From: an uncultured Collinsella sp.
GTDB taxonomy: Bacteria > Actinomycetota > Coriobacteriia > Coriobacteriales > Coriobacteriaceae
DNA: 41,187 nt
Assembly (NCBI GenBank): GCA_934668875.1
Contig: CAKUON010000015.1
Span: 1 to 41,187 of the forward strand
Reading direction: 5' to 3'
Position 1 is the stretch's first letter; each line of letters begins with the position of its first letter. Below the pieces are notes generated by a model that ran no database searches, was not told the origin of the DNA, and saw only the letters and a list, made by a program, of their open reading frames with translations. Shown piece after piece: positions 720 through 17,327 of this stretch. Position numbers and translations under genes: made by a program.

Positions 720-803
720 AGCCGAGTTTGTTGTCTTGGTCGGAAACCAAGACGCCTTATGCGCTGATCGGTAACCAGCGCCTGACCAATAAGGAGTCCT
801 ACC
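720..803 (+). promoter_or_regulatory. candidate bL31 mRNA leader (autoregulatory)
   Basis: The 5' leader between the promoter and rpmE folds into two hairpins. 733-753 is an 8-bp stem GTCTTGGT / ACCAAGAC with a 5-nt loop; 761-781 is a 6-bp stem GCGCTG / CAGCGC. The ribosome binding site (AAGGAG, about 790-796) follows. From memory, comparative genomics has proposed L31 leader motifs, including one specific to Coriobacteria, in which the protein is thought to bind its own mRNA. The match to that motif is inferred from position and structure only. Confidence 0.55.
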
Positions 804-12697: not shown

Positions 12698-12747
12698 AAT
12701 TGATCTCAAAAGTCAATATTGACCTCAGAGATCAATTGCAATATCCT
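12698..12747 (+). promoter_or_regulatory. 40-bp nested palindromic operator overlapping a promoter
   Basis: 12698-12737 is a perfect nested palindrome: outer arms AATTGATCTC / GAGATCAATT, 4-base spacers AAAA and CTCA, and the central perfect palindrome GTCAATATTGAC. A promoter fits on its right half: TTGACC (12719-12724), 17-bp spacer, TATCCT (12742-12747). The operator covers the -35, as expected for autorepression by the HTH protein encoded two genes down. The predicted start point would be very close to the ribosome binding site, so the exact promoter is uncertain. Confidence 0.7.
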
Positions 12748-12766
12748 TCTATCAAAGGAGGTGGCG

Positions 12767-13081
12767 ATGGATATCGAATATGCAAGCAAGTCGCTGGAGA
12801 AGAGCCTCAAGGATCAGAGGGCGATAACGAGGAACTACGGCAAGATAGCCAAGAACCTCATTCATCGTCTTTCCGATCTGCGGGTTGCGAATGACCTTTC
12901 GCAGATTACCCATCTGCCGCCGCCGCGCAGGCACAAGCTGACCGGCAACTTTGAGGGCTGTTGGGGAATCGACCTAAGCAAGAACATGAGACTGGTCATC
13001 CGTCCCGTCGGGGAGTTTGACCCGGATGACCTTACGACGATCACCAGCGTCTGCATCGTGGATATTCAGGACTACCACTGA
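12767..13081 (+). CDS. HigB/RelE-like toxin
   Basis: Probable mRNA-cleaving toxin of a toxin-antitoxin pair. 104 residues from ATG 12767, directly after an excellent ribosome binding site (AAAGGAGG). The C-terminal half has the HigB/RelE fold pattern: HKLTGNFEGCWGIDLSKNMR followed by LVIRP, then a closing strand ending IVDIQDYH. Basic residues K, R and H lie in the expected catalytic region; I cannot assign individual catalytic residues. Toxin-first order matches higBA. The HTH-ImmA gene follows 22 bp later. GC content is lower than in the flanking core genes, suggesting acquisition. Confidence 0.82.
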   Translation: MDIEYASKSLEKSLKDQRAITRNYGKIAKNLIHRLSDLRVANDLSQITHLPPPRRHKLTGNFEGCWGIDLSKNMRLVIRPVGEFDPDDLTTITSVCIVDIQDYH

Positions 13082-13103
13082 GCTAGGAGAGGAGAAGATA
13101 GCT

Positions 13104-14156
13104 ATGAGTGATTTCATCGTCGCGCCCGGCGAGATCATCAAGGAATACCTTGATGCGCGCGGTTTGACCCAAAAGGAAGTTTCGAAGCGTACCGGCGTGA
13201 GCGAGCGCCACCTCTCCCAGCTTCTGAACGGGAAGACCAGGCTTACCGAGGACATGGCGCTGAAGCTTGAGAAGGTCATGCCCGACGTTCCCGCGAGTTT
13301 TTGGCTTAACTATGAGGTCAAGTATCAGGAGTACCTTGCCCGCGAACGCGAGGAGGCGCATCTGGAGGAGCTTGACCTTAAGGAGATCGCCAAGAGGTTT
13401 CATTTCAAGGAGGTCTTTCCGCGAACGAGCATGTCTTTGGTTGAGCAAGCTGCGGCTATGCTGAAGATTCTGGGCGTTTCGGATTTTGACCGCTACATGA
13501 CTGCAATTCCCGGCGGGATGGAGTTCATGCAGGATGGTGGCAATTCGGAGGCTGTTGCCGTTTGGCTCGGGCTCTGCAAAGAGGAGATTGAGACTCAGAA
13601 TAAGGATTTAAGCGATACTCAATACTCTAGAGAGCTGCTTGAGTCGTCGCTTGGTCGTTTGAAGAAGATTGCCCTGAATCCAGATGTAAACGGTTCTATC
13701 AAGAGCGCACGCAAGTTTCTGAACAGGTGTGGAGTTTACCTAGTTGAGCATGAAGCTATCTCGAACGCTAAAGTACGTGGCGTGTTGACAACCTACTTGG
13801 GTCATCCTGCTATTTTCATCAGCAAGCGATACAAGACTCATGATCATGTCTGGTTTACGGTCGTGCATGAGCTTGCACACCTCTTGTTTCATTACGACCC
13901 CAAGCAGCAAATCGTGTCGATGGAAGAACTTGCAAGCGAAGAGCATAAGGACGAAGAGGCCAATGCGTTCGCAAGGCGTTTCTTCGTAGACCTGGACGAG
14001 TATGAGAGCTTTGTTGCAGCCGGTCATTTTACTGAGGGAAGAATCAGGGAATTCTCGTCCAGCCAGAGGGTGGATCCGGGTATTACGGTCGGCTTTCTTC
14101 AGCATGATGGATGCATCGGGTTTGACGCTTTCTCTAATCTTAAGTCCGCTTGTTAG
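13104..14156 (+). CDS. HTH (HigA/XRE) - ImmA/IrrE metallopeptidase fusion
   Basis: 350 residues. Residues about 9-60 are an XRE/HigA-type DNA-binding domain (LTQKEVSKRTGVSERHLSQL). A helical linker follows, and then an ImmA/IrrE (M78) peptidase domain with the zinc motif H255-E256-LA-H259 and a downstream EEANAFARRF helix near residues 282-291 that supplies the third ligand in this family. Start ATG 13104 follows GGAGAAG; the longer frame to 13017 overlaps the toxin and has no ribosome binding site. The gene position is that of the antitoxin. The family suggests a repressor that may cleave itself or a partner in response to a signal, as ImmA does to ImmR. It probably binds the 40-bp operator upstream of the toxin. 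Confidence 0.9.
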   Translation: MSDFIVAPGEIIKEYLDARGLTQKEVSKRTGVSERHLSQLLNGKTRLTEDMALKLEKVMPDVPASFWLNYEVKYQEYLAREREEAHLEELDLKEIAKRFHFKEVFPRTSMSLVEQAAAMLKILGVSDFDRYMTAIPGGMEFMQDGGNSEAVAVWLGLCKEEIETQNKDLSDTQYSRELLESSLGRLKKIALNPDVNGSIKSARKFLNRCGVYLVEHEAISNAKVRGVLTTYLGHPAIFISKRYKTHDHVWFTVVHELAHLLFHYDPKQQIVSMEELASEEHKDEEANAFARRFFVDLDEYESFVAAGHFTEGRIREFSSSQRVDPGITVGFLQHDGCIGFDAFSNLKSAC

Positions 14157-14169
14157 TAGGTGACGCCCC

Positions 14170-15312
14170 ATGTATGTCCTCACACTAAAGAATCGCCTAA
14201 ATGAGTTCAGGGCCGTACAAAGGCTGCGGGAGCTCGGACTTTTAGACGAAGGGCTTCTGCCTTTGGTCGAGGTGGTTAAGAAGGACGTTGCCTTTGATAA
14301 GCTGGTCGATCCCTCAACGGGTGAGTACGTCAAGGTCAACAAGCCATATAAAAGTGGAAAGCGCAAAGGTCAGCCCCGTATGTGCACGGTAGATGATCTT
14401 GAGACTGAGCGCGATGTCACCTTGGATAACATTAGTGATGCCTTTGCCGGTAAAAAGGTGTTGGTCGACTTCTTCCGCTGCTATATGCCCAAATACAAAG
14501 GCGCCGACCCCTCAAAATGCAAGCTTGTTCTTAAAATGAGCAACGACTTGGCGTTTTACGAGGAGGCGGTTAAGCGGCTTGCCGACTATCGAGATCTCAT
14601 CCCGGTCATCTCGGTGATTGACGAGCTGTCCAACCTCTCACCAAAATCCTTGGAAGCTTTGATTTTGGAGCTAAGGAAGACTTCTTCAAATAAACCAGTC
14701 GCCATCCGGATATCGACATATGAGGGGTACGAGCACATCTTGTCTGACCTTTTGGGGCCGGATGACTACTTGATTTACGACATCAACGAGACCCCGCCCG
14801 CTTCTCGTATCGAAGAGTTTGACGAGTTGGCTGACCTTCATATTGCGGCGCACTCTGTCCTACTGTGTTCGCCGCGCAAACGCGATGACGGGAACAAGGT
14901 GTACGAAGATGGCTGTTTCATCGACAATAGCCACATTCGTGACTTTTCCGAATATGGTTTCGAAGGCGTCGGCGACTATGCCGGGCTTCGTGATTCCTTA
15001 CCGCCCCGTCCGGGCGCGGGGGCCACTGGACGTGCTCTTGCCCTTTTTTATGACGGTTCATCAAATACCTTCAAAAGGTATATCAATCCAGACGTGAAGA
15101 AAGGCCAATCCGGCTACGACGATGTCGTAAAACAGATACTTGCAGACAGGGGCGAGCTGGAAAGACGTGCTGGCGAATGCGCCGTACTGTCTGAAATAGC
15201 TGATCATGCCGCAGCCGGAAACTATGGCGGTTGGCAGACTTGGATTGTGTACACCGTTGTTCGCTACGTGCAGCAGCTCTACCTCGCCCACGGTAACAGC
15301 TACAACCTCTAG
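14170..15312 (+). CDS. sce7725 family protein (beta-protein-like)
   Basis: 380 residues, function unknown. It matches my memory of the sce7725 / phage T4 beta-protein-like family: N-terminus MYVLTLKNRLNEFRAVQRL with PLVEVVKKD, a central LIYDINET segment, and the family block YGFEGVGDYAGLRDSLP followed by a Trp-rich end (GNYGGWQTWIVYTVVRY). The fold is probably an alpha/beta barrel-like protein; I see no obvious catalytic motif. It starts 13 bp after the HTH-ImmA gene, so it is in the same transcript as the TA-like pair. It converges with the sce7726-like gene, sharing a 4-bp overlap. The family name is from recall, not a search. Confidence 0.8.
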   Translation: MYVLTLKNRLNEFRAVQRLRELGLLDEGLLPLVEVVKKDVAFDKLVDPSTGEYVKVNKPYKSGKRKGQPRMCTVDDLETERDVTLDNISDAFAGKKVLVDFFRCYMPKYKGADPSKCKLVLKMSNDLAFYEEAVKRLADYRDLIPVISVIDELSNLSPKSLEALILELRKTSSNKPVAIRISTYEGYEHILSDLLGPDDYLIYDINETPPASRIEEFDELADLHIAAHSVLLCSPRKRDDGNKVYEDGCFIDNSHIRDFSEYGFEGVGDYAGLRDSLPPRPGAGATGRALALFYDGSSNTFKRYINPDVKKGQSGYDDVVKQILADRGELERRAGECAVLSEIADHAAAGNYGGWQTWIVYTVVRYVQQLYLAHGNSYNL

Positions 15313-16130
15313 TACACAATCTCCGGCTCTAGTCTGTTGCGGTAGAACCATTCGTAGTCAATACCGAAGACCTGCGGCTTTACTTTGCAGAAGTGCTCCC
15401 AGTAGGCACCGTAGCGTTGCTTGAGATAGGCCTTAAACAGCCGATTGATTTTGGCTTGGCTGTTCTCGGCAAGACACTCTTGAATGATGGCGGGCTTTGA
15501 CGTGCCCCCGCCGTCGATGCCGAAGGTCTCGCAGAGGGCGCGCTTGGGCATGACCGCGAGCTGCTTTTCGGAGTCCAGGTTGGTGCTTTTGATGGCTTTG
15601 CGCTGTGCCTTGAAGTGATAGGAGCCGTCCCTTGCGTCCTGGCTGTAGGAGTAAATCCCACAGGCCTCGGGGACGTAGCTTGGCAGTTCTTGCCAACGCT
15701 TGTCGGACGTCACGACGTAGACGGTCTCGAACACGTCGAAGTAGTCGCTCAACTGGCCCTCGAGACGATCGAACGTGTCGAGGTCGGTCTTGATCTCGTA
15801 GGCGGCGCTGTGGCCGTTGACCTTACACATGTCCACGCGGCTGTTGCCGATGGGAAGCTCGAAGATGGAGATGTTCGCGGGGCTCAGCGGAAAGAGGACC
15901 CTATCGATGAAATTGGCCTTGATGGTGGCTTCGTTCGGGTAATAACCCATCACCAAGTCGTTGATGGTCCTTCGGGCCGCGTATTTGGAGTCGAGCGCGG
16001 GGGCGAAGTCGCCGAGGACGTCTTGGATGATGGAGATGAGCTTGGATTCGGAGAGAACAGTCGAGTATGAATCGTAGAGCCGCTTTGCAGTCTCCCTCAA
16101 CTCTATGTCATCAAGTAGCATGGTCTCCAT
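15309..16130 (-). CDS. sce7726 family protein, PD-(D/E)XK nuclease-like
   Basis: 273 residues from ATG 16130, preceded by GGAGG. The central region carries a restriction-endonuclease-like core: E91 in FELPIG, then D100 in SRVD, then E112-I-K114 in AAYEIKTD. This spacing fits a PD-(D/E)XK nuclease active site. A helix rich in charged residues follows (FDRLEGQLSDYFDVFETVYV). This is the pattern I associate with the sce7726 family, whose namesake gene neighbours sce7725 in Sorangium, as here. The C-terminal half is basic and unassigned. The gene faces the sce7725-like gene tail to tail, and both stop codons are read from the same CTAG. Nuclease activity is inferred, not shown. Confidence 0.8.
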   Translation of the reverse strand: METMLLDDIELRETAKRLYDSYSTVLSESKLISIIQDVLGDFAPALDSKYAARRTINDLVMGYYPNEATIKANFIDRVLFPLSPANISIFELPIGNSRVDMCKVNGHSAAYEIKTDLDTFDRLEGQLSDYFDVFETVYVVTSDKRWQELPSYVPEACGIYSYSQDARDGSYHFKAQRKAIKSTNLDSEKQLAVMPKRALCETFGIDGGGTSKPAIIQECLAENSQAKINRLFKAYLKQRYGAYWEHFCKVKPQVFGIDYEWFYRNRLEPEIVY

Positions 16131-16339
16131 CGTTACCTCCGATGGGAATTTTACCATGATGGCCCAAAAACGCTTCTTAAGTTCGGTGTGTGTAACCCAG
16201 TGGGACGTATTTCTTCGGGCACTGCCGCCTTGCGGCTCCGATGCGCGGTTGACTTTTTGACGCCCGCCTAGGCTGCTCTTGATGAGTAACCAGGCGGGCA
16301 TCTTGTTGTGCTTGCCGTACGAGCGGAAAGGCGGTTCTC
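16131..16339. other. intergenic, start of degenerate region
   Basis: No gene. It contains an inverted repeat GCCCGCCT (16262-16269) / AGGCGGGC (16292-16299). Confidence 0.4.
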
Positions 16340-16795
16340 GTGAAGGAGGGATCGAATGGCGGGCAAGCGGACGAGGCGCAGCAGCAAGAGGCGGGCTCGG
16401 AAGACGCGCAGGAGCAAGGGGAAGTGACGGCCCTGGGCGGAGCCGGCGACGACTACCAGGCGATGCTTGCGAAGCGGGACGAGCGGATCGCGGAGTTTGA
16501 GGCACAGGTGGCCGATGCCTCCGCTTCCAAGGAGGCTGCCGAGGCGCTTCGCGGTGAGATCGAGGCGGTGAAGACCGCCGCTACGGACGAGCGCGTGGAG
16601 TACGAGCTGCGCCTCGTGGGCGCTCGCAGCGTAACGGCGGCCAAGGCTCTGCTCGCGGATCACGGCGGCGACGTGGTGGCGCTCAAGGTGTCGCGCCATG
16701 TGGGCGACGGCGTGGAGAGCGGGCCAACGCAGGCGGCCCGCGCCGTGCTGGCGGAGCTTAGCGGCGCGGGGATCGCATTCTGCGGGGTGGCGTGA
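16340..16795 (+). CDS. acidic coiled-coil ORF, possible remnant of a phage/ICE scaffold-like gene
   Basis: 151 residues from GTG 16340 (GGAAAGG about 8 bases upstream). An acidic Gln/Glu-rich N-terminus is followed by a heptad-like segment (LAKRDERIAEFEAQVADASA) and then RLVGARSVTAAKALLADHGG. This resembles, from memory, scaffold or minor structural proteins of actinobacterial prophages and integrative elements (LVGARNVxAARALLxDHGGD). The last 40 residues do not fit that pattern, and no partner phage gene is seen, so it is probably a decayed fragment. A 23-residue basic ORF in another frame (16356-16427) has a better ribosome binding site. Confidence 0.4.
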   Translation: MKEGSNGGQADEAQQQEAGSEDAQEQGEVTALGGAGDDYQAMLAKRDERIAEFEAQVADASASKEAAEALRGEIEAVKTAATDERVEYELRLVGARSVTAAKALLADHGGDVVALKVSRHVGDGVESGPTQAARAVLAELSGAGIAFCGVA

Positions 16796-17084: not shown

Positions 17085-17327
17085 ATGTGCTCACGTTCCG
17101 CGCAAAGTTGCCGGATTGTCGATATGAGGAGAATGCCAGACGGGCTTATCGAGGAAACCGGCCTGCTATACGTCGGCGTCACTCGCGCTCGAAAGGCGGT
17201 ATATGCCTCCGCCTCGATGCAACGCAGGACAAAGTTGGGGGACTATCAGGCCACCTGTCCCTCTTGTCTAATGCCTATTCCGGGTATTGCGCCTGTGAGC
17301 TGGGCGGTGATGGATACGGAGAGCTGA
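17085..17327 (+). pseudogene. UvrD/Rep-type helicase fragment (motif VI)
   Basis: The frame encodes LIEETGLLYVGVTRARKAVY, the hallmark helicase motif VI of UvrD/PcrA/AddA superfamily 1 enzymes, followed by RRTKLGDYQATCPSCLMPIP, which resembles the extreme C-terminus of such helicases. About 80 residues remain of a normally 600 or more, with no upstream helicase motifs in any frame. It is therefore a broken remnant, possibly of a larger defence-linked helicase gene that once sat in this island. Confidence 0.65.

What the first reader, a model, noticed from the sequence alone, without database searches (positions are those of the whole stretch)
12698..16130. Candidate defence module: HigB-like toxin, HTH-ImmA fusion, sce7725 and PD-(D/E)XK sce7726
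Seen: a toxin-like gene, an HTH-metallopeptidase fusion and an sce7725-type gene lie in one direction with 22- and 13-bp gaps. A nuclease-like sce7726 gene meets them tail to tail. The block lies in an island bordered by gene debris, with lower GC and different codons from the flanking housekeeping genes. Known: HTH/M78 proteins paired with small toxins have been reported as phage-defence TA candidates, and sce7725/sce7726 are neighbours in Sorangium. Inference: a four-part system in which the ImmA-type sensor controls a toxin and a nuclease effector.
Basis: partly seen in the sequence, partly recalled or inferred. Interest (0 to 1): 0.8.

Follow-up and report, generated by a model that had tools for sequence, protein, structure and literature searches.

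The report
PD-λ-2-like defence module with nuclease
Four neighbouring bacterial genes form a conserved, co-inherited unit that combines parts of two known anti-phage systems (PD-λ-2 and the gop-beta-cII cassette of satellite phage P4), suggesting that one shared two-gene core is fitted with different toxins.

Summary
Four genes lie at 12767-16130 in a lower-GC block: a HigB-like toxin gene, a HigA-HTH/M78-peptidase fusion, a Beta/sce7725-superfamily gene and, tail to tail, an sce7726 PD-(D/E)XK nuclease gene. They are a real unit: all 10 distinct loci fetched with the gene-3 subfamily carry all four, as does L119. Pairwise distances of the four proteins correlate (r 0.80-0.97). A palindromic motif lies at the higB promoter in 12 of 12 four-gene loci. 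Most of it combines known parts. Gene 2 matches PADLOC PD-Lambda-2_B (5e-31). Gene 3 is a remote relative of P4 Beta and PD-λ-2C. Gene 4 is a relative of P4 cII (tblastn 1e-6), and P4 has the same beta-><-cII layout. In IMG/VR, 60 of 66 distinct sce7726 loci examined have a Beta/sce7725 neighbour, 48 of them convergent; only 2 have HigB/HigA. Best reading: a PD-λ-2-type abortive-infection module plus the Beta-nuclease core of gop-beta-cII. Defence is inferred from tested relatives; the mechanism is untested. New variant of a known kind.

The parts
12698..12737 (.). palindrome, candidate operator of the HigA-type HTH
   Evidence: 20-nt arms, 85% complementary; motif TTGACCT-N3-AGGTCAA with 0-3 mismatches around the higB start of 12 of 12 four-gene loci; the motif was read from these promoters, so this is partly circular
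12719..12747 (+). promoter-like site TTGACC-17-TATCCT, its -35 box inside the palindrome
   Evidence: 3 sites found in the region, 2.0 expected in shuffles
12767..13081 (+). HigB/RelE-like toxin gene, 104 aa
   Evidence: Pfam HigB-like 17.7 bits (cut-off 27), RelE_StbE 21.3 (27.9), phrog toxin 1.8e-5; C-terminal DYH in 9 of 10 aligned homologues
13104..14156 (+). HigA-type HTH fused to M78 (ImmA/IrrE) metallopeptidase, 350 aa
   Evidence: TIGR02607 48.3 vs 47.7 bits; Peptidase_M78 34.1 vs 22; PD-Lambda-2_B 5.1e-31; HExxH in 10 of 10 loci
14170..15312 (+). Beta/sce7725-superfamily protein, predicted TIM barrel, 380 aa
15309..16130 (-). sce7726/cII-family PD-(D/E)XK nuclease, 273 aa, convergent with gene 3
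   Evidence: NF033832 118.3 vs 70 bits; PADLOC cll 1.4e-22; P4 cII by tblastn 1e-6; model pLDDT 94.5; fold matches

Best explanation
The block is one four-gene anti-phage module of abortive-infection type. HigB and the HigA-M78 protein form a PD-λ-2-like toxin-antitoxin pair: HigA-M78 binds the palindrome over the -35 box through its HTH and represses the operon, and the two proteins hold each other inactive. The Beta-like TIM-barrel protein and the PD-(D/E)XK nuclease form a second pair, as in P4 gop-beta-cII. Beta is the infection-sensing or signal-processing part; on infection it lets the HigB/HigA-M78 pair act (HigB mRNA cleavage and/or M78 proteolysis) and licenses the nuclease, which cuts DNA. 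Shown here: the gene unit, family links, conserved catalytic motifs, shared promoter motif and co-inheritance. Known from tested relatives: the defence phenotypes of PD-λ-2 and gop-beta-cII. Inferred: defence by this very locus, Beta as sensor, the nuclease's target, and the order of events.
For: All four genes in each of 10 distinct loci and in L119. Protein distances correlate between every two genes, r 0.80-0.97, 0 of 2000 permutations. Gene 2 hits PD-Lambda-2_B at 5.1e-31. P4 Beta hits PD-Lambda-2_C at 8e-14, and gene 3 of the four-gene locus L119 hits it at 2.7e-7. Gene 4 finds P4 cII by tblastn at 1e-6, 77 bits by profile. Same convergent layout in P4. Tested relatives defend: PD-λ-2, gop-beta-cII. 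Nuclease residues E91, D100, E112, K114, Q126 invariant in 24 of 24. Two loci with a split Beta gene keep open higB and higA-M78, as expected if Beta is not the neutraliser, like PD-λ-2C.
Against: No phage test of this locus or of any close relative. The window HigB hits no PD-Lambda-2_A model and gene 3 no PD-Lambda-2_C or beta model. Beta and sce7726 occur mostly without HigB/HigA (2 of 66), and HigB/HigA-M78 without Beta or sce7726 in 17 of 25 strong Coriobacteriia matches, so the two pairs can work apart. A weaker gene-3 relative, L120, shows no HigB/HigA. The distance correlation did not control for host relatedness. L022 and L003 may simply be decaying.
Confidence: 0.55

Rival explanations
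1. Two independent modules travel side by side: a HigB/HigA-M78 pair (addiction or defence) and a separate Beta-nuclease defence pair, with no functional link between them.
For: Each half occurs alone: 17 of 25 strong HigA-M78 matches in Coriobacteriia have no Beta or sce7726 nearby, and 58 of 60 paired viral-contig loci have no HigB/HigA. In L007, L008 and L119 the higBA pair lies on the other side of the nuclease gene.
Against: All 10 loci of the gene-3 subfamily keep both halves although the order differs, and the distances correlate between halves. In PD-λ-2 the Beta relative is needed for defence by the toxin pair.
Confidence: 0.22
2. The module is an addiction or maintenance element of a mobile island with no role against phages.
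For: Lower GC, sparse presence (8 of 396 Coriobacteriia genomes), one copy on a viral contig (L021), broken copies.
Against: Related PD-λ-2 and gop-beta-cII protect against phages in E. coli; an invariant nuclease site is not expected of a pure addiction pair.
Confidence: 0.1
3. One reading: the ImmA-type M78 domain is the sensor. It cleaves the HigA part on infection, which frees HigB and de-represses the nuclease.
For: HExxH kept in 10 of 10; M78 proteins act as regulators elsewhere (recalled).
Against: The nuclease gene is on the other strand, no promoter-like site was found upstream of it and no inverted repeat (region 16080-16260); the nuclease follows Beta, not HigA-M78, across loci.
Confidence: 0.1

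Closest known systems
PD-λ-2 (Vassallo et al. 2022, PMC9519451; passages and section 9 read)
   Same: HigB-like first gene, HigA-HTH/peptidase second gene (PD-Lambda-2_B 5.1e-31), Beta-superfamily third gene, same order and direction
   Different: First and third proteins are not recognised by the PD-Lambda-2_A and _C models; a fourth, convergent nuclease gene is present. The paper describes three components
gop-beta-cII of satellite phage P4 (Rousset et al. 2022, PMC9122126; passages read)
   Same: Beta-superfamily gene convergent with an sce7726/cII nuclease gene
   Different: The gene before Beta is higB/higA-M78, not gop; Beta similarity is remote; [quoted passage not shown]
Alphaproteobacterial plasmid loci (L026, L033, L035, L207)
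   Same: HTH-M78 gene, Beta gene, convergent sce7726; PD-Lambda-2_B for L026 and L035, PD-Lambda-2_C for L026 and L207
   Different: First gene is DUF6932 in L026 and L035, not HigB
sce7725/sce7726 pairs with RES toxin (Moraxella L027, Coriobacteriia L093 and L094)
   Same: Same superfamily pair next to a toxin
   Different: All genes on one strand; RES protein instead of HigB/HigA-M78
HigBA type II toxin-antitoxin
   Same: Toxin gene first, HigA-family HTH second, palindrome at the promoter
   Different: Antitoxin fused to an M78 peptidase; two further genes; HigB below cut-off

Membership tests
PD-λ-2 | first protein recognised as PD-Lambda-2_A | tested here: not met
   0 PADLOC families at E up to 0.1 and up to 1. 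A profile of HigB relatives matched a mixed set at hhalign 2.9e-20, but not the two PD-Lambda-2_A members L205 and L206 themselves (E 1.1 and 2.5)
PD-λ-2 | second protein recognised as PD-Lambda-2_B (HigA HTH + peptidase) | tested here: met
   PDLC03982 5.1e-31; HTH_3 and Peptidase_M78 over cut-off
PD-λ-2 | third protein recognised as PD-Lambda-2_C (P4 Beta relative) | tested here: inconclusive
   No hit for the window protein; gene 3 of the four-gene locus L119 hits PDLC03984 at 2.7e-7; profile comparison with Beta proteins, probability 91%
PD-λ-2 | A-B-C order on one strand | tested here: met
PD-λ-2 | abortive-infection defence; B toxic, A rescues, C needed for defence | not testable with these tools
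   needs plating and expression assays
gop-beta-cII | gop gene before beta | tested here: not met
   the gene before gene 3 is HigA-M78
gop-beta-cII | Beta protein | tested here: inconclusive
   no direct hit; 2 of 32 relatives hit PADLOC beta, best 2.7e-4; profile comparison
gop-beta-cII | cII/sce7726 gene convergent with beta | tested here: met
   PADLOC cll 1.4e-22 (that 'cll' is cII of gop_beta_cII is inferred from the names), tblastn to P4 cII 1e-6, convergent in the window and in P4
sce7726 family (NF033832) | score over the curated cut-off | tested here: met
   118.3 vs 70 bits
sce7725 family (NF033831) | score over the curated cut-off | tested here: not met
   no hit for the window protein; 5 of 32 relatives hit, best 1.9e-4
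HigBA type II toxin-antitoxin | HigB toxin over the curated cut-off | tested here: not met
   17.7 vs 27 bits
HigBA type II toxin-antitoxin | HigA antitoxin over the curated cut-off | tested here: met
   TIGR02607 48.3 vs 47.7 bits
HigBA type II toxin-antitoxin | toxicity and neutralisation | not testable with these tools
   needs expression assays
PD-(D/E)XK nuclease superfamily (gene 4) | conserved D, ExK and Q | tested here: met
   D100, E112, K114, Q126 invariant in 24 and 47 sequences
PD-(D/E)XK nuclease superfamily (gene 4) | core fold | tested here: met

The most novel reading that the evidence does not exclude
Beta/sce7725 TIM-barrel proteins and sce7726/cII nucleases form one old, toxin-independent immune core. 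Beta reads an infection signal, probably a small molecule or nucleotide bound or converted at its conserved barrel mouth, and then both licenses the nuclease and lets an exchangeable toxin act: Gop, HigB/HigA-M78, DUF6932 with HTH-M78, or RES. PD-λ-2 and gop-beta-cII would be two faces of this one family, and the window a copy that carries both halves.
Probability: 0.33. Interest if true: 0.78.

Novelty: new variant of a known kind. Interest (0 to 1): 0.58.

Why it matters
PD-λ-2 and gop-beta-cII are published and listed as separate anti-phage systems; the searches made here found no held paper that ties them together. The window and its relatives link them: the same Beta-superfamily and nuclease pair stands next to different toxin genes. 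If right, it predicts that a poorly understood 'antitoxin' (Beta) is an enzyme-like TIM-barrel sensor, that cII/sce7726 is its nuclease partner, and that many unannotated sce7725/sce7726 pairs are defence systems. This can be tested in a laboratory E. coli strain with gene deletions.

Tried and rejected

The published E. coli PD-λ-2 locus was not fetched, so whether it has a convergent cII gene stays open. Among plasmid loci with an HTH-M78 gene that were looked at, four have Beta and sce7726 (L026, L033, L035, L207), two have Beta without an annotated nuclease (L203, L204), and in nine others no Beta is annotated (L030-L032, L199-L202, L205, L206; not all tested by profile).

The idea that the gene before Beta is always a toxin was not upheld: 21 of 48 convergent viral-contig loci show no same-strand ORF just upstream of Beta (some end at a contig edge). 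Of 29 neighbour proteins listed, 21 were sent to Pfam and 2 were RES. Seven of 48 convergent loci have an upstream ORF of 111-149 aa with a hydrophobic segment in its first 50 residues, like Gop (my threshold).

Results against the reading: sce7726 without a detected Beta/sce7725 partner in 6 of 17 Coriobacteriia genomes (two at contig ends, one a partial hit) and in 6 of 66 viral loci (two cut by the contig end); no annotated Beta beside sce7726 in L029, L036 and L038.
Full report
WHAT IS THERE. The window is from Coriobacteriia, by an L31-Coriobacteria leader and by the nearest held genome, whose class also holds the Slackia, Gordonibacter and Atopobium contigs. The host assembly itself is not held. 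Four ORFs lie at 12767-13081, 13104-14156 and 14170-15312 on + and 15309-16130 on -, with gaps of 22 and 13 nt and a 4-nt tail overlap. GC falls to about 0.50.

GENES. Gene 1 is HigB/RelE-like, below curated cut-offs, with a phage toxin family hit of 1.8e-5. Its C-terminal DYH is shared by 9 of 10 aligned homologues; that this resembles HigB catalytic residues is recalled, not tested. Gene 2 has a HigA-type HTH over the NCBI cut-off and an M78 domain; its best PADLOC match is PD-Lambda-2_B, 5.1e-31, and HExxH is kept in 10 of 10 loci. Gene 3 has no direct model hit; of 32 relatives 5 weakly hit sce7725_fam, 8 Beta_protein and 2 PADLOC beta. Profile comparison with eight Beta-type proteins aligns 314 columns (probability 91%, E 1.1e-6 for one comparison). 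Gene 4 is sce7726 family (118.3 vs 70 bits).

A REAL UNIT. The genome-contig scan with the gene-3 alignment gave 8 loci and the search of 396 Coriobacteriia genomes gave 8 genomes. Six are the same places, and the one viral-contig locus L021 repeats L004, so there are 10 distinct places (L002 and L003 near-identical). All 10 carry all four genes, though gene 3 is split in L022 and L003. L119, found through its nuclease, adds an eleventh. A weaker relative, L120 (gene-3 profile E 1e-12), shows no HigB/HigA. In L007, L008 and L119 the higBA pair lies on the other side of the nuclease gene. The 34 homologues of the protein search carry no context and were not counted. Across 10 loci including the window, pairwise protein distances correlate between every two genes (r 0.80-0.97; 0 of 2000 permutations); host relatedness was not controlled.

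PROMOTER MOTIF. A 40-nt palindrome, arms 85% complementary, spans 12698-12737. Its second half holds the -35 box of the only promoter-like site found upstream of higB (TTGACC-17-TATCCT). The motif TTGACCT-N3-AGGTCAA was read from these promoters, so its recurrence is partly circular. It occurs with 0-3 mismatches around the higB start in 12 of 12 four-gene loci. In the window there are 5 matches at up to 3 mismatches where 0.77 are expected; two are in the palindrome. In 13 pair-only loci the same region matched with 3 mismatches in 2, with 4-5 in 7 and not in 4; five of the 13 show TTTACC-N5-GGTAAA instead.

LINK TO KNOWN SYSTEMS. PD-λ-2 has a HigB-like, a HigA-peptidase and a P4-antitoxin-related protein; overexpressed B was toxic, A rescued it, and C was not needed for neutralisation but was needed for defence against λvir (PMC9519451, section 9 read). 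P4 carries gop, beta and convergent cII, and RefSeq names beta and cII 'beta family' and 'sce7726 family'. gop-beta-cII protects against λ and P1 (PMC9122126, passages read). P4 Beta hits PADLOC PD-Lambda-2_C at 8e-14. Gene 4 finds P4 cII by tblastn at 1e-6, and a profile of its relatives scores cII at 77 bits. So genes 2 and, remotely, 3 are PD-λ-2-like, while genes 3 and 4 repeat the beta-><-cII half of P4. Gene 1 is HigB-like but outside the PD-Lambda-2_A models. Alphaproteobacterial plasmids also join an HTH-M78 gene, Beta and sce7726, with DUF6932 in place of HigB in the two tested. Rac-SA53, pSTEC1024_3 and Pasteurella phage Pmp11 have beta-><-cII too.

HOW WIDE IS THE CORE. An sce7726 scan of IMG/VR returned the best 80 of 143 loci. 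Removing identical nuclease proteins leaves 66: 60 have a Beta/sce7725 gene within 300 nt, 48 convergent and 12 on the same strand; 6 have none. The Beta profile was iterated on ORFs of these same loci, so weak members were pulled in by design. Only 2 of 66 have HigB/HigA (L118, which is the locus L004 again, and L119). In Coriobacteriia sce7726 is in 17 of 396 genomes: 8 in the four-gene unit, 3 beside sce7725 (two followed by a RES protein), 6 without a detected partner. PD-Lambda-2_B matches 48 of 396 genomes at E up to 0.001; of 25 matches with E at most 3.7e-18, 8 lie in the four-gene unit and 17 do not. None of those 17 shows Beta or sce7726 on the stretch fetched (several contigs are short), and HigB is seen in 13. 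Others have seen sce7725, sce7726 and a RES protein together on a Pseudomonas element (PMC9394441, passage read).

NATURAL BREAKS. In L022 a 357-aa ORF lies between two pieces of the Beta gene, and in L003 a 438-aa ORF follows a Beta gene with a changed end; both ORFs look transposase-like by eye (no family search), and higB and higA-M78 stay open. In L003 the nuclease ORF is shorter with an unusual start. This fits a Beta that is not needed to keep the toxin pair quiet, as for PD-λ-2C, and differs from P4, where gop was reported toxic without beta. Two cases are few, and general decay is possible.

VERDICT. A genuine, conserved four-gene module, probably anti-phage, made of known kinds of parts in a combination not found described by the searches made (open-licence papers only, no preprints). 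It is not filed as a member of PD-λ-2 or of gop-beta-cII, since a defining feature of each was not met, but it probably works like both. The strongest new point is the shared Beta-nuclease core that links them. Function and mechanism at this locus are inferred.

Noticed in passing
window 16340-16795: ORF with a weak Phage_scaffold match (29.4 bits, cut-off 35), possibly a phage remnant beside the module.
   Followed up: no
window 17085-17327: Short ORF like the C-terminal end of UvrD/Rep helicases, below cut-off (20.5 vs 25.6 bits).
   Followed up: no
window 761-796: L31-Coriobacteria ribosomal protein leader candidate, 35.1 bits against a gathering score of 33, E 0.057.
   Followed up: no
L022 8963-10036; L003 9048-10364: Two different transposase-like ORFs lie in or at the end of the Beta gene of two four-gene loci.
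   Followed up: partly
L101, L105, L109, L112, L113 upstream of higB: HigB/HigA-M78 pairs without Beta show another palindrome, TTTACC-N5-GGTAAA, in 5 of 13 loci, as if operator and HTH changed together.
   Followed up: partly
L201 3770-5014: A PD-λ-2B-like HTH-M78 gene beside Tn7-like tnsD/tnsE genes, near blaNDM-1, on an Acinetobacter plasmid; described only.
   Followed up: no
L031 4670-7468: A RelE-like gene, a HigA-M78 gene and a Fic gene in a row after restriction-modification genes on a Deinococcus plasmid: another third partner for the pair.
   Followed up: no
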